Positions 2,334-13,281 of a stretch of 13,295 bases of DNA are shown in pieces. This DNA comes from an uncultured Eubacteriales bacterium. GTDB taxonomy: Bacteria; Bacillota_A; Clostridia; Christensenellales; Aristaeellaceae. The stretch lies in assembly GCA_902803675.1 (NCBI GenBank), contig CADCQZ010000324.1, forward strand, positions 1 to 13,295. The letters run 5' to 3'. Position 1 is the stretch's first letter; every line of letters begins with the position of its first letter. Under the pieces are notes generated by a model. It ran no database searches, was not told the DNA's origin, and saw nothing but the letters and a program-made list of their open reading frames with translations. The position numbers and the translations under genes are program-made.

Positions 2334-3248
2334 ATGAGCTTTGAAAAATATCGCGGTGTCATCCCCGCATTCTATGCCTGCTACGACGACGAGGGGAACG
2401 TGAGCCCCGAAAGGACCAAAGCGCTGGCCCGCCATCTGGTGAACAAGGGCGTGCAGGGCCTGTATGTGAACGGTTCCAGCGGTGAGTGCATCTATCTGCG
2501 CCCCTGCGAGAGGCGCACGATCCTCGAGGCCGTTATGGAAGAAGTGGGCGGCGAATGCACCATCATCGCCCACGTGGCCTGCAACAACACCGCCGATTCC
2601 ATGGCCCTGGCCGCCCACGCCCAGAGCCTCAAGGTGGACGCCGTCGCGTCCATCCCCCCCATCTACTTCCACCTGCCCGAGGACTCCATCGCCAAATACT
2701 GGAACGATATCTCCTCCGCCGCGCCGGACACGGATTTCGTGATCTACAACATCCCCCAGCTGGCAGGCGTGGCGCTCACGCCGAGCCTGTTCAAAAAAAT
2801 GCTGCAGAACCCCCGCGTGATCGGCGTGAAGAACTCCTCCATGCCCGTCCAGGACATCGAGACCTTCGTGCGTCTGGGCGAAGGGAAGATCGTGGTGTTC
2901 AACGGCCCGGATGAGCAGTTCGTCTCCGGCAGGGCCATCGGCGCCTGCGGCGGCATCGGCGGCACCTACAGCGTGATGCCCGAACTGTTCCTGAAGATGA
3001 ACGAGCTGATCGGAAAGGGCGACATCCCCGCCGCGGCCCGGATCCAGCACGAGGTCAACGCCATCATCGAAGGGCTGTGCGCCTGCAAGGGCAATATGTA
3101 CGCGGTCAACAAGGCCGTGCTCAGGATCAACGAAGGCCTGGAGCTGGGCGGCGTCCGCGCGCCTCTCGCGCCCCTTGTCCCGGAGGATATGCCCAAGGTG
3201 GAAGCCGTGGCCGAAAAGATCCGCAGGGCCGTCAAAGAGTTCTGCTGA
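2334..3248 (+). CDS. nanA: N-acetylneuraminate lyase-type aldolase (DapA/NanA superfamily)
   Basis: A 304-residue class I aldolase of the dihydrodipicolinate synthase / N-acetylneuraminate lyase superfamily (E. coli NanA has 297). Seen in order: the pyruvate carboxylate-binding loop GSSGE (47-51), the catalytic Tyr138 in YNIP, the Schiff-base Lys166 in GVKNSS, and a 'NGPDEQF...GACGGIGGTYS' stretch. The last matches the NanA pattern NG-x-DE-x-F-x-SG ... GA-x-GGIG-x-TYN far better than that of DapA. The IPP-x-YF motif also fits NanA. The expected reaction is cleavage of N-acetylneuraminate to N-acetylmannosamine and pyruvate in the cytoplasm. A sister activity on a related 2-keto-3-deoxy sugar acid cannot be excluded. 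The ATG follows a perfect AAGGAGG. It is the last gene of the transporter operon and is followed by a strong terminator. NanE and NanK, needed for the next steps, are not in the window. Confidence 0.78.
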   Translation: MSFEKYRGVIPAFYACYDDEGNVSPERTKALARHLVNKGVQGLYVNGSSGECIYLRPCERRTILEAVMEEVGGECTIIAHVACNNTADSMALAAHAQSLKVDAVASIPPIYFHLPEDSIAKYWNDISSAAPDTDFVIYNIPQLAGVALTPSLFKKMLQNPRVIGVKNSSMPVQDIETFVRLGEGKIVVFNGPDEQFVSGRAIGACGGIGGTYSVMPELFLKMNELIGKGDIPAAARIQHEVNAIIEGLCACKGNMYAVNKAVLRINEGLELGGVRAPLAPLVPEDMPKVEAVAEKIRRAVKEFC

Positions 3249-5723: not shown

Positions 5724-5728
5724 CGGAG
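5724..5728 (+). promoter_or_regulatory. Ribosome binding site fixing the LacI-family start
   Basis: CGGAG at 5724-5728 lies 8 nt before the ATG at 5737. An in-frame GTG three codons earlier (5728) overlaps this site and so cannot use it. The ATG also places the conserved helix-turn-helix at the usual distance from the N-terminus. Confidence 0.65.
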
Positions 5729-5736
5729 TGGATCGG

Positions 5737-6753
5737 ATGAGCAGTCTGCAGGACGTGGCAAAGCTGGCGGGGGTCTCCAACACCCTGGTATCCAGAACGA
5801 TCAACAATCAGAGCGGTGTCAGTGAGAAAAACAAAAAAAAGATCCTGGCCGCCATGGAAGCGCTGCACTATGAGCCCAACGCCCTGGCCAGGTCCCTGGT
5901 GAAAAGGCGCACCGGGACTATCGGCATCGTGATGGATACCCTTTGCGAGCCCTACTTCTTTCCGCTGATCGAAGGCCTGGAAAGCGCCATCGACACGACC
6001 GGCTACGATCTGGTGTTCTCCTCGGCGCGCAACAGCCTGGCCCACAAGGAGAGCGCCGTCAAATACTATATGCAGGGCCGGGCGGACGGCGTCATCTTTT
6101 ACGGCAGCCGCCTGGAGGACGAGGGCATCATCCATTCCCTCGCCGGGGGGAAATTCCCCTTTGTGGTGGTGGAAAACACCTTCCCCATGCTGGATATCAA
6201 CAATATCTCGCTGGACAACGCCTTCGGGTCCGCCCTGGCTGTGGACCATCTGATCGCCTGCGGGTGCAGAAAGATCTTTCACGTGGGCGGCGATATGCGC
6301 CACCGCGTCTCCATCGACCGGCAGAACGGCTTCATCACCGCCATGCAGCACCACGGGGTCACGGTGGACAGCCGCATGCTGATCCAGGCGGATTTCGACA
6401 CGGAATCAAGCACCCGCATCATGGCGGAATACCTCCGGAACACCCCGGTCAAAGAACTGCCGGACGCCTTCTACTGCGGATCGGACAATACCGCCTACGG
6501 CACGGTCACGGCTCTGGAGGAGAAAGGTATCCGCGTGCCCGACGATATCATGGTGATCGGTTTCGATAATGACGCCCCGCCCAGGGGCTACCGCTACCGG
6601 CCGCTCACCACCCTGTCCCAGCCCCTGAAGCAGATGGGCGTCAGCGCCATCGAGACCCTGATCGCCAAGATCGAGGATCCGCAGGCCCCCTGCCGGCACA
6701 TCGTGTTCTACCCTGAACTGGTCAGGCGTCAGACCACTCGAGAAAAAGAATAG
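5737..6753 (+). CDS. LacI/GalR-family transcriptional regulator
   Basis: A 338-residue regulator of standard length. The DNA-binding domain spans residues 1-45 with the signature LQDVAKLAGVSNTLVSRTIN (4-23). The hinge helix follows at about 46-60 and holds ALARSL, whose leucine pries open a central CG step in this family. Residues 61-338 form a periplasmic-binding-protein-like sugar-sensing domain, with 'GTIGIVMDTLCEPYF', 'ADGVIFYG', the SDNTAYG motif and 'VIGFDND' in the usual order. It probably represses the downstream operon. The intergenic region just after it holds a perfect palindrome with a central CG, right behind the operon's promoter. I see no copy of that palindrome before the phosphatase-regulator unit, so autoregulation is not evident. 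The effector is unknown and is likely a sugar or sugar phosphate of the downstream pathway. Confidence 0.93.
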   Translation: MSSLQDVAKLAGVSNTLVSRTINNQSGVSEKNKKKILAAMEALHYEPNALARSLVKRRTGTIGIVMDTLCEPYFFPLIEGLESAIDTTGYDLVFSSARNSLAHKESAVKYYMQGRADGVIFYGSRLEDEGIIHSLAGGKFPFVVVENTFPMLDINNISLDNAFGSALAVDHLIACGCRKIFHVGGDMRHRVSIDRQNGFITAMQHHGVTVDSRMLIQADFDTESSTRIMAEYLRNTPVKELPDAFYCGSDNTAYGTVTALEEKGIRVPDDIMVIGFDNDAPPRGYRYRPLTTLSQPLKQMGVSAIETLIAKIEDPQAPCRHIVFYPELVRRQTTREKE

Positions 6754-6903: not shown

Positions 6904-6968
6904 TTTCAGTCAAGAGATCCTCAGAAAAAGAACAGCCCACGCAGTTTTTTACGAAAGGACGATCCCAT

Positions 6969-8252
6969 ATGAAATTATCCATTGTCGGTGCCGGAAGCTC
7001 CTACACCCCCGAGCTGATCGAGGAAATGATCGACCGCCGGGACACACTGCCCGTCAAGGAACTGGTCCTGTACGATATCGACGAAAAGCGTCTTGACATC
7101 ATGACGGGGTTCTGCCGCCGGTTCGCGGACAAGCGGGGGATGCAGGGACTGATCATCCGCGCCACCACCGACCTTGACGACGCCCTGGAAGGCGCCGATT
7201 TCGTGGACACACAGATCCGGGTGGGCGGCAACCGCCAGAGAGTCAAGGATGAAAAGATCCCCCTGAAATACGGCCTGGTGGGCCAGGAGACCACCGGCGC
7301 GGGCGGCATGATGAAGGCCTTCCGCACCATCCCGGTCATGATGAACGTGGCCAGGCACATGGAAAAGGTCTCCCCCGACGGCTGGATCATCAACTACACC
7401 AATCCCACCGGCCTGGTGACCGAAGCCGTGACGCGCTACACGAAGGCGCGTATCGCCGGTTTCTGTTCCGGGGGCATCTTCCCGAAGATGTGGGCCTCAA
7501 GAGCCCTGGGCATCGGCTACACCGGTAAGGACTACGGCCGGGTGCAGTACGATTATGTGGGCCTGAACCACATGAATTTCATCAGCAACATCACCATCGA
7601 CGGTCGGCCGATCACCCGGGATGAGTTCAACGCCCTGGCCGAACAGAACGGGCACGATGTGGACCCGGAACTGAGCAGGCTGCTGGGTGTGCTGACAAGC
7701 CCGTATCTGCAGTACTACTACCACACCGGAGCGAAAGTGGAAAAGCTCCGCGCCCAGAAGCAGACCCGGGGCGAATATGTGCAGGAACTGGAAAAGGAAG
7801 TCTACGCTGCCTATGCCGATCCTGACAACGCGGACAAGCCCGCCGCCCTGGAAAAGCGCGGCGGCGGCGGATACAGCGAAGTGGCCATGAACTTCGTGAA
7901 CGCTGTCTTCAACAACTGCGATACCGAGCAGGTGGTCAACGTGCCCAACAAGGGAGCCGTCCCCTTCCTGCCGGACAGCGCCGTGGTGGAGATCAACTGC
8001 CTGGTCAACAGGCGCGGCATGGCGCCCATCCACCGCTCCATGGATCAGATCCCGCCCATGTGCTGGGGCCTGATCGCCGCCGTGAAAAACTATGAGCAGC
8101 TGGCGGTGGAAGCGGCTGTGGAAGGAAGCGTCACCAAGATGAAATGGGCTCTGCTGGCCCATCCCCTGGTGCGCGAATATGAGCTGGTGGAAAAACTGGT
8201 CCCCGAACTGATGGAAGCCAACAGAGAGTTCCTTCCCCAATTCGAACTGTGA
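6969..8252 (+). CDS. Glycoside hydrolase family 4, 6-phospho-beta-glucosidase-like (NAD- and metal-dependent)
   Basis: A 427-residue GH4 enzyme of usual size (410-450). The NAD-binding Rossmann start is GAGSSYTPE (7-15). The signatures GQETTGAGGMMKAFRTIPV (105-123) and NYTNPTG (142-148) follow. Metal ligands Cys166 (FCSGG) and His201 (GLNHMN) are present, and a Tyr cluster near 249-251 may supply the base. GH4 enzymes cleave glycosides by transient oxidation at C3, mostly on 6-phosphorylated disaccharides; the relatives LicH/CelF/ChbF act on phospho-cellobiose or chitobiose derivatives. The residue after Cys166 is Ser, where LicH/CelF types have Asn and alpha-glucosidase types have Asp, so specificity is open. 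The start is the ATG at 6969, 9 nt after GAAAGGA; the frame is open further upstream but that part is promoter and operator. It is first in the operon, and a kinase gene follows 12 bp later. Confidence 0.9.
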   Translation: MKLSIVGAGSSYTPELIEEMIDRRDTLPVKELVLYDIDEKRLDIMTGFCRRFADKRGMQGLIIRATTDLDDALEGADFVDTQIRVGGNRQRVKDEKIPLKYGLVGQETTGAGGMMKAFRTIPVMMNVARHMEKVSPDGWIINYTNPTGLVTEAVTRYTKARIAGFCSGGIFPKMWASRALGIGYTGKDYGRVQYDYVGLNHMNFISNITIDGRPITRDEFNALAEQNGHDVDPELSRLLGVLTSPYLQYYYHTGAKVEKLRAQKQTRGEYVQELEKEVYAAYADPDNADKPAALEKRGGGGYSEVAMNFVNAVFNNCDTEQVVNVPNKGAVPFLPDSAVVEINCLVNRRGMAPIHRSMDQIPPMCWGLIAAVKNYEQLAVEAAVEGSVTKMKWALLAHPLVREYELVEKLVPELMEANREFLPQFEL

Positions 8253-8264: not shown

Positions 8265-9263
8265 TTGAGAACTGTTCTGGGAATTGATCAGGGCGGCAGC
8301 AAGACCTACGCCGTCATCACCGATGACACCGGCCGGATCCTGGGAACAGGCCGCGGCCCGGGCGCCTGCCATTCGGACGCGGGCATGGCCCGTGCCATGG
8401 CGGCCGTCGCCGAGGCGGCCGGGCAGGCCTGCGCCGAAGCGGGGATCGCTCCCGGCACCGTGACCGCCGCGGCGGGAGGCCTGACCGGCGTGGACTGGCC
8501 CGATGAAGCGGACCTGGTGCGCAAGGCCCTGGCTGATACCCTCCTCATCCCCGCGGAAAGGATCCAGGTGGTCAACGACTGCCTGATCGCCCTGCGTGCC
8601 GCCACCTCCAGCCCGGCGGGCTGCATCCTGTGCGCGGGCACCGGCCTTAACTGCGCGGTGCGGGACGGCCGGGGCCGCGAATACACCTTCGGCTTCTATA
8701 TCCGTGAAAAGGATCAGGGGGGCATGGCCCTGGCCCGCAGAGTGCTGCAGGCCGTGTATGACGCCGAGTCCGGCATGGGTCCCACCACCGCTCTTTCAGA
8801 TCGGGCGCTCGCCCTGGCCGGCTGCGGCACCGTGGACGATCTCCTGCGCATGCAGGTCACGGGAAAGCTTCCCGGCGGCATCATGCAGCAGCTGCCCCTG
8901 ATGCTCGAGGAGACAGCCCTGGAAGGCGATGAAGTATCCCTGGAACTCCTCCGCGGCTTCGGCAGGGATACGGCCGCTTATGCCGTGGCCGCCCTCAGGC
9001 GCTTCCATATGGAGAACAGCGCCGTCCGGGTGGTGCTGTCCGGCAGCGTGTTCAAGTGCCGCGCGGCGGCCCTGCTGGACACGGTCAGGGCCTCGATCCT
9101 TTCCTCCGTCCCCCGCGCGGTCATCACCGAAAGCACGTGGGAACCTGTGATCGGCGCCGTCCTGCTGGCCCTGGATCATTTGGAAGGCACGGACGCGGCC
9201 GTCATTCAGCAGCATATAAAGCGCGATGCACAGCGCTTTAATATGGTCCGCAAAACAAATTGA
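8265..9263 (+). CDS. BadF/BadG/BcrA/BcrD-family ATPase, N-acetylglucosamine-kinase-like sugar kinase
   Basis: A 332-residue member of the ASKHA (actin / sugar kinase / Hsp70) superfamily in the BadF/BadG/N-acetylglucosamine kinase group. Seen in order: phosphate-1 loop DQGGSKT (8-14), a TGVD segment (74-77), NDCLIAL (104-110) whose Asp105 matches the catalytic aspartate of NAGK, phosphate-2 loop CAGTG (123-127), and LSGSVF (258-263) in the adenosine-binding part. The motif usually read as GWG-x-LGDEGSG is degenerate here (FGFYIREKDQGG), so it is a diverged member. It would phosphorylate the imported sugar or glycoside with ATP in the cytoplasm, making the 6-phospho substrate that GH4 enzymes need. 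Translation starts at TTG. The gene sits 12 bp after the GH4 gene and 16 bp before the binding-protein gene, whose ribosome binding site overlaps its stop. Substrate not proven. Confidence 0.83.
   Translation: MRTVLGIDQGGSKTYAVITDDTGRILGTGRGPGACHSDAGMARAMAAVAEAAGQACAEAGIAPGTVTAAAGGLTGVDWPDEADLVRKALADTLLIPAERIQVVNDCLIALRAATSSPAGCILCAGTGLNCAVRDGRGREYTFGFYIREKDQGGMALARRVLQAVYDAESGMGPTTALSDRALALAGCGTVDDLLRMQVTGKLPGGIMQQLPLMLEETALEGDEVSLELLRGFGRDTAAYAVAALRRFHMENSAVRVVLSGSVFKCRAAALLDTVRASILSSVPRAVITESTWEPVIGAVLLALDHLEGTDAAVIQQHIKRDAQRFNMVRKTN
9217..9240 (+). other. 8-bp hairpin at the kinase 3' end, upstream of the binding-protein gene
   Basis: TAAAGCGC (9217-9224) and GCGCTTTA (9233-9240) form a perfect 8-bp stem with an 8-nt loop in the last codons of the kinase gene, 40 bp before the binding-protein ATG. 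With the hairpin behind that gene it would flank the binding-protein message. It may guide mRNA processing or stability, or be a chance codon pattern. Confidence 0.4.
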
Positions 9264-9279
9264 AAAGGAGAGTGTTCAC

Positions 9280-10554
9280 ATGAAAAAGTGCATGGCCCTC
9301 ATCACCGCTCTGATGATGCTGCTTTCCCTGGGGATGGCAGCCGTATCCGCCGAGGAGCAGATCACCCTCACCTTCTGGCACATCTGGCCCACCGATCAGA
9401 TGAGCGACATCGTCAAGGATTACATCGCCATCTACGAAGCAGAGCATCCCAACATCCGCATCGAAGCGAGCGCCTATCAGGAAGTGGACTACCAGACCAC
9501 CAAGCTGCCCATCGCCGCTTCCACCAAATCCCAGGGCGACGTGTTCTTCTGCTGGGGCGGCGGTTCCGCCAAGACCTACGTGGACGCCGGCGCCGTGCTG
9601 AGGCTGGACGAATACCTGGAGAAGGCCAATGTGTACGACAGCCTGCTGGACGGCACCCTGACCTACGGCACCTATGACGGCGGCATCTACGGCCTGCCCC
9701 TCAAGCAGTGGGCCGGCGTGCTGTTCTGCAACCAGGAGATCTTCGATGAGTACGGCGTCAAGATCCCCGAGACCTGGGACGAGATGATGACCGCCGTGGA
9801 GACCTTCCGCGCCAACGGCGTCACCCCCCTGGTGCTGGGCGCCAAGGATGCCTGGCATATCGGCATGATCCAGAACGCCCTGGCCGTGCGCACGGCGGGC
9901 CCCGAATACGTGAATGCCGCTCTGTCCGGCGAAAAGACCATGAACACCCCGGAGATCGTCCGTTCCGCCCAGCTCCTGGTGGACCTGAACAACGCCAAGG
10001 CGTTCTGCAACGGCACCCTGGGCGTCAGCTCCGAGGAAGCTCAGGAAGAGTTCTACATGGGCATGGTGGCCATGTATTTCGGCGGCAGCTGGTGCGCTTC
10101 CGGTTGTGACAGCCCCGACAACGATCTGGTGGGCAAGGTCACCGTGACCACCCTGCCCGTCGTGGACGGCGGCCTGGGCGACAGCACCACCTATTCCGGC
10201 GGCGTGATCGACTTCATGATGGTGAACTCCGCCACCGAGCATCCGGACGAGGCCTTTGATTTCGCCCTCGGCATGACCAAGTACATGTCCCAGGAATGCT
10301 ACAAGATCGGCGACTCCCTGCCCGCCTGGAAGCTTCCGGATATCGATGAATCCGAAGTGTCCCCCACCCTGATCGCCATCAAGAACCTGATCCAGAACTC
10401 CACAGGCTACGTGCTGGCGTGGGATACCTTCCTGGCCGGCGCCGCCATCGACGCCCACTACCAGGCGCTGCAGGGCCTGATCGCCGGCACCATGACCCCC
10501 GAAGAATTCGCCGTGGCCATGGATGAAGCGGTCATCGCTATGTACGCCGAATAA
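9280..10554 (+). CDS. Sugar ABC transporter substrate-binding protein (family 1)
   Basis: A 424-residue exported protein of the usual length. The N-terminus is a classic Sec signal peptide: MKK, a hydrophobic core at 5-19, and an AVSA-EE cleavage site after residue 24. There is no lipobox cysteine, although most Gram-positive binding proteins are lipoproteins, so how it stays at the cell is unclear. The mature part starts with 'ITLTFWHIWP', the first strand of the COG1653 fold. It continues with 'HPNIRIEASAYQ', 'GDVFFCWGGGSAKTYVDAGAVLRLDEYL' and 'YGLPLKQWAGVLFCNQEIFDEYGV', all in the family order, and many Trp and Tyr residues are available to stack on a sugar. The ATG lies 11 bp after AAAGGAG. 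The same operon carries the two permeases. The ligand is probably the glycoside processed by the GH4 enzyme and kinase upstream. Confidence 0.93.
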   Translation: MKKCMALITALMMLLSLGMAAVSAEEQITLTFWHIWPTDQMSDIVKDYIAIYEAEHPNIRIEASAYQEVDYQTTKLPIAASTKSQGDVFFCWGGGSAKTYVDAGAVLRLDEYLEKANVYDSLLDGTLTYGTYDGGIYGLPLKQWAGVLFCNQEIFDEYGVKIPETWDEMMTAVETFRANGVTPLVLGAKDAWHIGMIQNALAVRTAGPEYVNAALSGEKTMNTPEIVRSAQLLVDLNNAKAFCNGTLGVSSEEAQEEFYMGMVAMYFGGSWCASGCDSPDNDLVGKVTVTTLPVVDGGLGDSTTYSGGVIDFMMVNSATEHPDEAFDFALGMTKYMSQECYKIGDSLPAWKLPDIDESEVSPTLIAIKNLIQNSTGYVLAWDTFLAGAAIDAHYQALQGLIAGTMTPEEFAVAMDEAVIAMYAE

Positions 10555-10620: not shown

Positions 10621-11499
10621 ATGGAAAAAGCCCTGCGGGACAAAAAAGCCATCCTGTTCTTCGTGCTCCCGGCCTTCATATGGTTTTTCGCCATCGCGCT
10701 GTTCCCCGTGCTCCAGTCCGTCGGATACAGCACGCTGAACTGGAACGGCATTTCCGAAGGCAGATTCGTCGGCCCGGACAATTACTCAGTCCTTCTGACG
10801 GATGACCTGTTCTGGCAGTCCATCTGGCATTCCCTGATCCTGGCCGGAGCTTCCCTGTTCATCCAGCTGCCCATTTCGATGCTGCTGGCCATGATCCTGG
10901 CCAACGGCGTCAGGGGCGAGACCGCTTACCGGAACATCTTCTTCGTACCGGTGATCATTTCCGGCACGGTCATCGCCAACCTGTGGATGAAGGTCTATCA
11001 TCCGTCATACGGGCTGCTGAACAACATCCTGAACTCCGTGGGGCTCAGCGGCTGGACCCACGAATGGCTCGGGTCAACGGACACGGCCCTGGGCGCGTGC
11101 TTCGTCCCCATGGTGTGGCAGTACATCGGCTATCACATGCTGTTGTACTATTCCTCCGCCAAGTCCATCAGTGAGGACATCCTGGAGGCCGCCCGGGTGG
11201 ACGGCGCCAATAAGCGCCAGCTGGTGTTCCGGATCATCATGCCCCAGATCGTACCGATGATCAAGGCCAGCACGATTTTCGCCATCATCGGTTCCCTCAA
11301 ATCATTCGACATGATCCAGATCCTCACCAAGGGCGGCCCGGTGCACGCCTCCGAGGTGCCGTCACTGCTCATGTACACCAATATCTTTACCACCCGCCGG
11401 TACGGGTACGCCAGCGCCATCGCCATTTTCATCATAATCGAGTGCCTCCTGTTCACTCTCGCCGTGCAGAAACTGTTCGGCGCGATCCAGAAAGAATAG
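10621..11499 (+). CDS. Sugar ABC transporter permease, MalF/UgpA type
   Basis: A 292-residue inner-membrane channel subunit with about six hydrophobic segments, the first at 10-33 ('ILFFVLPAFIWFFAIALFPVL'-like). The EAA loop is at 189-191 (EAARVDGANKRQLVF) with the expected MPQIVP continuation. 'LTKGGPVHASEV' in the last periplasmic loop is typical of the UgpA group. The ATG follows AAGGAGGGATC. The second permease begins 16 bp downstream. It is only distantly similar by eye to the first-cassette permease at 487-1401, so the two transporters are likely separate acquisitions with different ligands rather than a fresh duplication. Confidence 0.93.
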   Translation: MEKALRDKKAILFFVLPAFIWFFAIALFPVLQSVGYSTLNWNGISEGRFVGPDNYSVLLTDDLFWQSIWHSLILAGASLFIQLPISMLLAMILANGVRGETAYRNIFFVPVIISGTVIANLWMKVYHPSYGLLNNILNSVGLSGWTHEWLGSTDTALGACFVPMVWQYIGYHMLLYYSSAKSISEDILEAARVDGANKRQLVFRIIMPQIVPMIKASTIFAIIGSLKSFDMIQILTKGGPVHASEVPSLLMYTNIFTTRRYGYASAIAIFIIIECLLFTLAVQKLFGAIQKE

Positions 11500-11515: not shown

Positions 11516-12373
11516 ATGAGCACGATCACACAGACGAAGAAAAGGACCGGCAGCCTGAAAAACAGGACCGGCCCGCTGATGACGGTGTTCCTCATCATCG
11601 TGGCCCTGATCCAGCTGTTCCCCCTTTACTGGATGTTCTCCTTCTCCCTCAAGGACAATAAGGAGATCTTCGGCGCCAATCCCATGGGCCTGCCGCAGAA
11701 ATGGCAGTGGGACAATTACTCCAAGATCTTCACCGCCGGCAGCATGGGCACCTACCTGCTCAACAGCGTGATCGTCACCGCCTCGACGATCCTGCTGACC
11801 CTGCTGCTCTCGGCCATGGCCACTTATGCCATCGTGCGCATGAAGTGGAAGCTGAGCAGGACGGTGTATACCATATTCCTCATCGGCATGATGCTGTCGG
11901 TGCAGGCGGTGATGCTGCCCCTGTACGTGAACCTGCAGCCCATTTTATCCACCCACTGGGCCCTGATCCTGCCCTACACGGCCTTCGCCATGCCCCAGGC
12001 CATCCTGCTGATGGTCGGTTCCCTGGAGGCGCTGCCCAAGGAGATGGAAGAGGCCGCCTTTATCGACGGCGCCAATATCTACCGGATCTTTTTCATCATC
12101 ATCCTGCCGATGCTGGCGCCCATACTGTCCACCGTGGCGATCCTGACCTTCCTGAGCACCTGGAACGAGTACATGCTCGCTTTGGTATTCATCTCCACCG
12201 ATAAACTGAAGACCGTCACCGTGGGCGTCAACGACATGGTGGGCAAGTATTCCACCAAATGGGGCGTCATCGGCGCCGGATTGACCATGGCCACGCTGCC
12301 CACCCTGATCATGTACGCGGTCCTGAGCAAAAACATCACCAACAGTCTGGCCATGGGAGCCGTGAAAGGATGA
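11516..12373 (+). CDS. Sugar ABC transporter permease, MalG/UgpE type
   Basis: A 285-residue partner of the preceding permease. A basic N-terminus (about 20 residues) leads into the first membrane segment, which ends in 'FPLYWMFSFSLK', the MalG/UgpE hallmark. The EAA loop is at 179-181 (EEAAFIDGANIYRIFF) with LPMLAP after it. The C-terminus 'LAMGAVKG' is nearly the same as that of the other MalG-type permease in this window. It starts at ATG after a perfect AAAGGAGG. The deaminase-like gene begins only 5 bp after its stop, with its ribosome binding site inside the last codons, which suggests translational coupling. No ATPase gene accompanies the pair. Confidence 0.94.
   Translation: MSTITQTKKRTGSLKNRTGPLMTVFLIIVALIQLFPLYWMFSFSLKDNKEIFGANPMGLPQKWQWDNYSKIFTAGSMGTYLLNSVIVTASTILLTLLLSAMATYAIVRMKWKLSRTVYTIFLIGMMLSVQAVMLPLYVNLQPILSTHWALILPYTAFAMPQAILLMVGSLEALPKEMEEAAFIDGANIYRIFFIIILPMLAPILSTVAILTFLSTWNEYMLALVFISTDKLKTVTVGVNDMVGKYSTKWGVIGAGLTMATLPTLIMYAVLSKNITNSLAMGAVKG
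12364..12370 (+). promoter_or_regulatory. Ribosome binding site fixing the start of the Cys-rich/NagB fusion gene
   Basis: GAAAGGA, inside the last codons of the permease gene, lies 8 nt before the ATG at 12379. The in-frame ATGs further on (for example 12474) have no purine-rich site before them. The full-length reading with the Cys-rich N-terminus is therefore preferred. Confidence 0.65.
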
Positions 12374-12378
12374 CGCCT

Positions 12379-13281
12379 ATGAGATGCACCTGCCCCTATA
12401 TCCCCTGCAAGATGCACGGAAACTGCAAAGCCTGTATCGCCCACAACATCCACACCGGTGACCTGGCCCACTGCATGGAAAAAACGGCGATGGCCCGCGG
12501 CGCGGTCATGCCGCTGCGCCTGCCCGGTAAAGTGTATCTTGAAAACGACTTTGAGGCCATGAGCCGGCGCAGCGCCGAACTGGTGGCGGATGTGGTGCGG
12601 GCAAAGCCCGACGCCCTGATCTCCCTGCCCGCCGGCAGCACCGCCAGGCGCACCTATGAGATCCTCAAAGAAATGGCGGACCGCGGAGACGTCGACTTCA
12701 GCCGCGCCCGGTTCGTGGCTCTTGACGAATGGCTGGACCTAAAGGATGAGAGCGAGAACTGCGACGCTTTCATGCGGAAGAACTTTTACACGCCCCTCGG
12801 CATCCCGGACGAGCGGGTGAAACGCTTTGATATCCACGCCGCCGACCTTGACAGGACCTGCCGGGACGTGGACGAGTTCATCTTCGCCCATTCCGGCATC
12901 GACGTGATGCTCCTGGGCGTGGGCATGAACGGGCATCTGGGGCTGAATGAGCCGGGCGGCGATTTTTCGGATTACGCCAAGGTGGTGGAACTGGACAGCG
13001 TCACGATGAACGTGGGCCAGAAATACTTTACCGGCGGCATGGAGCTGACGCGGGGCATCACCCTGGGCGTGCACCACATGTTCGACGCGAAGCTCGTGAT
13101 CCTGCAGGTGGGCGGCGCGCACAAAGCGGATATCATGGAACGGGTACTGCGCACGCCTCCGACCGAGGATCTGCCCGCCACCGTGCTCAAGCTGGTCGAC
13201 AACGGCGTCCTGGTCATCGACCGTGACGCCGCGTCCAAAGCCATGGACCTGATGGAAGGGCCGCAGGTCATCAAAGGATAA
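12379..13281 (+). CDS. Glucosamine-6-phosphate deaminase/isomerase-like enzyme with N-terminal Cys/His-rich domain
   Basis: A 300-residue protein made of two parts. Residues 1-34 hold six cysteines (3, 5, 10, 16, 19, 32) and four histidines (13, 22, 25, 31), which looks like a small zinc-binding fold. Residues about 51-300 are a NagB-type sugar-phosphate isomerase of normal size: the phosphate loop SLPAGST, LDEW (115-118) with Asp116 at the position of the catalytic base, and GVGMNGHLGLNEPG (180-193), where His186 and Glu191 match the ring-opening pair. Asn184 stands where E. coli NagB has Asp141, as I recall for Bacillus-type enzymes. The expected reaction is glucosamine 6-phosphate to fructose 6-phosphate and ammonia; galactosamine 6-phosphate is an alternative. 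It is the last gene seen in the operon and would deliver the product of the GH4 enzyme and kinase to glycolysis. The gene name is left open because of the fusion and substrate doubt. Confidence 0.85.
   Translation: MRCTCPYIPCKMHGNCKACIAHNIHTGDLAHCMEKTAMARGAVMPLRLPGKVYLENDFEAMSRRSAELVADVVRAKPDALISLPAGSTARRTYEILKEMADRGDVDFSRARFVALDEWLDLKDESENCDAFMRKNFYTPLGIPDERVKRFDIHAADLDRTCRDVDEFIFAHSGIDVMLLGVGMNGHLGLNEPGGDFSDYAKVVELDSVTMNVGQKYFTGGMELTRGITLGVHHMFDAKLVILQVGGAHKADIMERVLRTPPTEDLPATVLKLVDNGVLVIDRDAASKAMDLMEGPQVIKG

What the first reader, a model, noticed from the sequence alone, without database searches (positions are those of the whole stretch)
12379..13281. Cys/His-rich mini-domain fused to a NagB-type sugar-phosphate isomerase
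Residues 1-34 carry six Cys and four His in a C-x-C-x4-C-x2-H-x2-C-x2-C pattern and run without a stop into a complete NagB-like domain. Known NagB proteins start almost directly with the first strand of the catalytic fold. The pattern resembles small free-standing Cys-rich proteins that I recall from clostridia, but none I know is fused to an amino-sugar isomerase. A metal-binding or redox-sensing head could regulate the enzyme, set its oligomer, or bring it to the coupled transporter permease.
Basis: partly seen in the sequence, partly recalled or inferred. Interest (0 to 1): 0.72.

Follow-up and report, generated by a model that had tools for sequence, protein, structure and literature searches.

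The report
Six-cysteine module fused to sugar isomerase
A clostridial amino-sugar enzyme carries an extra 45-residue, six-cysteine, probably metal-binding module at its front end; the fusion is real and shared by many relatives, but what the module does for the enzyme is untested.

Summary
ORF 12379-13281 opens with C3-x-C5-x4-C10-x5-C16-x2-C19-x12-C32 and runs in frame into a complete NagB/AgaI-type isomerase. It is no frameshift or misassembly: of 123 proteins (window plus 122 homologues), 112 have a complete six-Cys head and 11 start inside or after it. Synonymous change exceeds non-synonymous change in the head. AlphaFold2 orders the head (pLDDT 87-94), ahead of a core that begins where known NagB proteins begin. 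Sampled headed proteins form one clade on the AgaI-like (LDEW) side of the tree; one member lost the head but kept the operon. The operon (LacI, GH4, BadF-type kinase, ABC importer, isomerase) recurs in four other genomes. The four His are not conserved; the six Cys are. Modules outside the isomerase carry His four residues after the fifth Cys (66 of 67); fused heads carry Asn or Ser (110 of 112). One fused head that lost C16 has Cys there. I read the head as a thiolate metal site, most likely zinc, rigidly attached to the isomerase. Metal, redox and regulatory roles are inferred.

The parts
12365..12370 (+). probable ribosome-binding site AAAGGA, 8 nt before ATG 12379
   Evidence: sequence
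12379..12474 (+). six-Cys head proper, residues 1-32 (C3, C5, C10, C16, C19, C32)
12475..12525 (+). second head helix and connector, residues 33-49; C32-to-LDEW distance 81 or 82 residues in the 111 proteins measured
12526..13278 (+). NagB/AgaI-type sugar-phosphate isomerase core, residues 50-300; LDEW 115-118, N184-G-H186, N190-E191-P192
13279..13281 (+). stop codon
11516..12373 (+). ABC sugar permease (second), directly upstream
10621..11499 (+). ABC sugar permease (first)
9226..10554 (+). ABC sugar-binding protein (true start probably further in)
8265..9263 (+). BadF/NagK-type sugar kinase
6966..8252 (+). GH4 glycosidase
5728..6753 (+). LacI-type regulator

Best explanation
The gene encodes the last enzyme of an ABC-import / GH4 / kinase operon, probably for an amino-sugar glycoside: an AgaI/NagB-type isomerase-deaminase acting on a hexosamine 6-phosphate. 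Its N-terminal 45 residues are a six-cysteine module related to the DUF6485-like small clostridial proteins and gained once. The module most likely binds metal (probably zinc) through its thiolates, folds as two short helices, and is held rigidly against the core, where it stabilises or tunes the enzyme (oligomer contacts or access to the active site) rather than taking part in chemistry. Shown: the fusion, its conservation, one headed clade, relationship to free-standing modules, an ordered model, the operon. Inferred: metal, packing on the core, substrate, effect on the enzyme.
For: Complete six-Cys heads in 112 of 123 proteins. P0079 lacks C16 but has Cys at position 23, the place of the His in free-standing modules; this looks like a ligand swap. 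Head pLDDT 87-94 and pTM 0.91 for the whole model. C32-to-LDEW distance is 81 or 82 in all 111 proteins measured, so the join is no loose tether. pN/pS in the head 0.027/0.688, 0.041/0.495 and 0.213/0.728 in three genome pairs. One headed clade, SH-aLRT 100, with headless L003 inside it (29 headed rows sampled); 100/96 in the careful tree. Head against free-standing profile: hhalign 98.1%, E 7.4e-14. LacI-GH4-kinase-SBP-permease-permease-isomerase order in G001, G002, G739 and G740 as in the window.
Against: L003 lacks the head yet keeps the operon and the motif residues, so the head is not essential for the pathway there; its genome shows no separate module at E<=1. No coordinates were available, so Cys geometry and contacts with the core were not inspected. 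The head predicted alone from 3 sequences had pLDDT 53. A profile search of PDB sequences gave one chance-level hit. One fused head (P0118) keeps the His of free-standing modules. Substrate is inferred from gene order alone; no deacetylase gene lies between LacI and the isomerase, and E. coli AgaI is not needed for GalNAc or GalN use (PMC3668189 abstract).
Confidence: 0.5

Rival explanations
1. The head is a redox or oxygen switch: an iron-sulphur cluster or reactive thiolates whose oxidation changes isomerase activity in these anaerobes.
For: Six conserved Cys in a clostridial lineage; two of 34 heads gave weak Fer2_4 (2Fe-2S) hits, best E 0.028.
Against: 18 of 34 heads match DUF6485 and 2 the 2Fe-2S model, both weakly. 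The spacing matches no Fe-S motif that I recall. No redox-partner gene among the genes from LacI to the isomerase.
Confidence: 0.2
2. The head is a docking module that brings the isomerase to a partner, such as the ABC permease or the kinase.
For: The isomerase gene follows the second permease gene in the window and in the six other neighbourhoods compared. Many free-standing relatives could be adaptors.
Against: Connector of nearly fixed length and an ordered model point to packing on the isomerase itself. L003 keeps the permeases without the head. Free-standing modules have no recurrent neighbours in the 14 loci looked at by eye.
Confidence: 0.15
3. The head is a metal store or buffer with no effect on the enzyme.
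For: Cys-rich; lost in L003 without loss of the operon.
Against: Non-Cys residues (P6, A18, M33, E34, G41, A42) are invariant or nearly so among 85 proteins, which a mere thiol store would not need.
Confidence: 0.08
4. Artefact: misassembly, frameshift, or translation from an internal start after residue 34.
For: 11 of 123 proteins are written from internal starts.
Against: Same fusion in three genomes of the genus of Blautia parvula, each on one contig of over 5 Mb there. P0060, written without most of the head, agrees over the 37 residues printed with locus L035, which carries the whole head in frame upstream; the two are not identical throughout. pN below pS in the head in all 15 pairs.
Confidence: 0.02

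Closest known systems
DUF6485 (PF20095) and similar small free-standing clostridial six-Cys proteins
   Same: Order and nearly all spacing of six Cys; hhalign 98.1% over 37 columns.
   Different: Below Pfam's gathering score (20.2 of 24 bits on residues 1-50); Asn/Ser instead of His four after the fifth Cys; fused to an enzyme; lacks the YDRS tail seen in several of them.
AgaI, E. coli (P0125, NF007291)
   Same: LDEW and NGHLGLNEPG motifs; same side of the tree as the headed clade (100/95); about 36% identity.
   Different: 251 aa, no Cys head; the window protein scores 166.9 of 271 bits.
NagB glucosamine-6-phosphate deaminase (B. subtilis 2bkv, E. coli 1dea)
   Different: Starts at model residue 50; Tyr instead of Trp in LDEW in all 28 headless NagB rows.
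DUF3795 protein ending in the same module (L032)
   Same: Shows that the module also joins another protein.
   Different: Module at the C-terminus, His kept.

Membership tests
PF20095 DUF6485 | Pfam gathering score of 24 bits | tested here: not met
   15.5 bits whole protein, 20.2 bits residues 1-50; 18 of 34 heads match at E<=0.1
PF20095 DUF6485 | six Cys with C-x-C-x4-C-x5-C-x2-C-x12/13-C (pattern of the free-standing relatives seen here) | tested here: met
PF20095 DUF6485 | His four residues after the fifth Cys (feature seen in the free-standing relatives here) | tested here: not met
   Asn in this protein; 96 N, 14 S, 1 H, 1 C of 112 complete fused heads against 66 H, 1 E of 67 modules outside the isomerase
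PF01182 glucosamine/galactosamine-6-phosphate isomerase superfamily | Pfam gathering score of 27 bits | tested here: met
   69.1 bits
PF01182 glucosamine/galactosamine-6-phosphate isomerase superfamily | catalytic residues (E. coli D72, H143, E148; numbering and roles recalled) | tested here: met
   D116, H186, E191 invariant among 85 proteins; aligned to solved NagB. The residue at E. coli 141 is Asn here, as in 14 of 28 NagB rows
AgaI (NF007291) | curated cut-off of 271 bits | tested here: not met
   166.9 bits; ordinary NagB paralogues in G001 and G002 score 147-167
AgaI-like (LDEW) subgroup | Trp after LDE; one side of a branch from NagB | tested here: met
   29 of 29 fused rows W, 28 of 28 NagB rows Y; support 100/95, with a warning about long branches of AgaI and the Listeria row
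AgaI-like (LDEW) subgroup | acts on galactosamine 6-phosphate | not testable with these tools
   needs enzyme assay
NagB (TIGR00502) | curated cut-off of 236.9 bits | tested here: not met
   137 bits
Zinc-binding small domain (any known fold) | match to a solved metal-binding fold | tested here: inconclusive
   profile search of PDB only chance level; fold search aligned the core; lone head model poor and not searched

The most novel reading that the evidence does not exclude
The head is a six-thiolate metal centre, perhaps a two-metal cluster comparable in size and helix plan to fungal Zn2Cys6 (comparison recalled), that makes an amino-sugar isomerase answer to metal or redox state. The His-to-Asn/Ser change marks the step from a free-standing module to a built-in regulatory one. 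The large unstudied DUF6485-like family would then be a set of metal-dependent adaptors or regulators of enzymes.
Probability: 0.15. Interest if true: 0.72.

Novelty: new variant of a known kind. Interest (0 to 1): 0.45.

Why it matters
It gives a concrete enzyme partner to a widespread small-protein family: a module was found in 107 of 398 sampled genomes of the phylum, and the name DUF6485 is in 0 papers of the library searched. Because the module is joined to an enzyme with a measurable activity, and because a headless relative with the same operon exists, its function can be tested directly by comparing enzyme with and without head.

Tried and rejected
Four His as ligands: rejected, not conserved. 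Frameshift or misassembly: rejected. Asn at E. coli position 141 as a mark of the headed clade: rejected, 14 of 28 ordinary NagB rows have it. Listeria protein as a headed relative (its match began at query residue 24): rejected, the upstream part overlaps the end of the permease gene and holds no module. A 600-residue open frame with a module in G795 as another fusion: read as a free-standing gene at the end of an unrelated open frame (inference). Neighbours of free-standing modules as a clue: none recurrent in the 14 loci looked at. Search of the large protein set with the head profile: 3 candidates, none scored. Head predicted alone from 3 sequences: unusable. PDB: no clear relative of the head by profile; structure matches listed span the core. 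Crude ORF picking hid GH4 in G740 and most of the operon in G001; tblastn found them. Paper searches: no listed title or abstract describes this fusion; one search held 40 papers of which 20 were listed. The term AgaI also matched 'against' (seen). Plasmid records gave 38 matches, all under 60% identity; only the Listeria and E. coli ones were read. Tandem repeats and Rfam on the window gave nothing bearing on this. No promoter scan and no search of viral or phage collections was made.

Full report
What is there. The ORF at 12379-13281 encodes 300 residues. Pfam finds PF01182 (glucosamine-6-phosphate isomerase) at residues 59-271, above its cut-off, and a weak DUF6485 match at residues 3-33, below its cut-off. 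Residues 1-50 alone match DUF6485 at E 8.4e-4 (20.2 of 24 bits). The start at 12379 has a good ribosome site; 12370 is an in-frame alternative.

Is the head real and kept. Two searches gave 122 distinct homologues; with the window protein 123. The second search found 868 proteins, of which only the best 120 are listed, so the set is the near kin, not all. Of 123, 110 have the exact spacing C-x-C-P-x3-C-x5-C-x2-C-x12-C. P0118 has one residue less before the last Cys, and P0079 has a two-residue deletion; both still have six Cys. The other 11 start inside or after the head. For one of these, P0060, the 37 residues printed agree with locus L035, which carries the complete head in frame upstream; P0060 is not identical to L035 throughout. 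The other 10 were not traced. The head is about as conserved as the core (mean majority frequency 0.69 for residues 3-32, 0.72 for 51-290, 85 proteins). Among five genomes and the window, synonymous change exceeds non-synonymous change in the head in all 15 pairs (lowest pN/pS 0.027/0.688; many pairs are saturated at synonymous sites), so the head is translated and under purifying selection. The distance from the last Cys to LDEW is 81 residues in 64 and 82 in 47 of the 111 proteins measured.

Structure. AlphaFold2 on an 85-sequence alignment gave mean pLDDT 93.1 and pTM 0.91; the first four blocks of ten residues score 87, 94, 92 and 89, with helices at 16-26 and 31-39. Structural alignment places model residue 50 on residue 1 of E. 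coli, B. subtilis and human NagB: the head is a pure addition. The head folded alone from three sequences was not confident. No coordinates were available, so Cys geometry and head-core contacts were not seen.

Relatives of the head. A profile of 34 heads finds matches in 47 of 391 genomes of the class at E<=0.01, the centre G001 being the only one with an isomerase-sized open frame. Read out, 28 of the loci fetched by that call are small proteins with six Cys, and one more (L032) has the module at the end of a DUF3795 protein. A wider profile found a module in 107 of 398 genomes of the phylum at E<=0.001. Profile against profile, heads and free-standing proteins align over 37 columns at 98.1% probability. 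Of 68 loci examined, 67 gave 68 modules that fit the Cys pattern (L146 gave none; three partial hits without the pattern were dropped); leaving out the Blautia fused one, 67 modules have 66 His and 1 Glu four residues after the fifth Cys, or 59 His and 1 Glu among 60 distinct sequences. Complete fused heads have 96 Asn, 14 Ser, 1 His (P0118) and 1 Cys (P0079) of 112. P0079 has lost C16 and has Cys at this very position. One protein is weak evidence, but it is what a metal site with interchangeable ligands would look like.

How common is the fusion. In reference genomes it is rare, judged by open-frame length and fetched loci: 1 of 391 (class, the centre itself), 2 of 150 (family of G001, centre included), 1 of 200 (family of G002, the centre), 3 of 20 (genus of G002, centre included), 1 of 29 (genus of G001, the centre), 1 of 398 (phylum, the centre). 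Genes cut by contig ends could be missed.

Ancestry. On core columns, 29 headed proteins (a third of the 85 aligned, plus P0079) and L003 form one group with SH-aLRT 100 on a long branch (79 rows, quick tree; two partial rows and duplicate headed loci left out). A careful tree of 60 rows, with 20 near-copies and one very long row removed and two rows added, keeps this (100/96) and puts E. coli AgaI and a Listeria LDEW protein on the headed side, apart from 28 ordinary NagB rows (100/95); the two added rows have long branches, so their place is less sure. L003 sits inside the headed clade (99 for the five-row group), lacks a head, has a ribosome-like site before its own start and keeps the operon: a secondary loss. 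G001, G002, G739 and G740 also have ordinary NagB paralogues.

Operon. In the window: LacI, GH4, BadF/NagK-like kinase, sugar-binding protein, two permeases, headed isomerase. The same genes in the same order are found in G001, G002, G739 and G740; in G739 an extra reverse-strand ORF lies between the binding protein and the permeases. G506 shows permeases and isomerase before its contig ends. L003 has the set with a headless enzyme and only a piece of LacI at its edge. The set suggests import of a glycoside, cleavage by GH4, phosphorylation, and isomerisation-deamination of a hexosamine phosphate; no deacetylase gene lies between LacI and the isomerase. The substrate is inference. AgaI itself is a warning: in E. 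coli its deletion did not affect galactosamine use (PMC3668189, abstract read), and a 2025 review gives it an auxiliary role (PMC12118421, passages read). A 2017 comparative study names AgaS and AgaI as non-orthologous enzymes for the same step (PMC5583593, passages read).

Mechanism. I commit to a metal-binding, most likely zinc, module that packs on the isomerase and tunes its stability, assembly or activity (0.5). A redox or Fe-S switch (0.2), a docking module (0.15) and a metal store (0.08) remain. Everything about metal, packing and effect is inference from conservation and the model.

Novelty. The databases do not show the architecture: none of the listed homologues carries a precomputed Pfam label for the head, and the searches listed no paper on it by title or abstract. 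Both halves belong to known kinds, so it is a new variant of a known kind.

Noticed in passing
L032 (G014:C105): A DUF3795 protein ends in the same six-Cys module, His kept: a second fusion of the module.
   Followed up: partly
L144 (G1049:C75): Two neighbouring ORFs each carry a variant module, one with Glu in place of the usual His.
   Followed up: no
P0079, residues 10-23: Fused head that lost C16 and has Cys at position 23, where free-standing modules have His.
   Followed up: partly
P0118, N-terminus: Fused head with one residue less before the last Cys that keeps the His of free-standing modules.
   Followed up: no
L003 5959-6717: Headless member inside the headed clade, same operon: a natural head-loss comparison.
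   Followed up: yes
window 2334-3248: DHDPS-family lyase closest to N-acetylneuraminate lyase (210 of 281 bits, below cut-off), beside a second ABC importer and an inositol-monophosphatase-like gene; possibly a second sugar operon.
   Followed up: no
window 6966-8252: GH4 enzyme nearest by sequence to 6-phospho-beta-glucosidases (5c3m, 1s6y), yet encoded with an ABC importer and a kinase rather than a PTS; its substrate form is unclear.
   Followed up: no
L148 4067-4795: Listeria LDEW-type isomerase gene follows lactose/cellobiose-type PTS genes and precedes an aldo/keto reductase and a sugar-phosphate isomerase/epimerase gene.
   Followed up: partly
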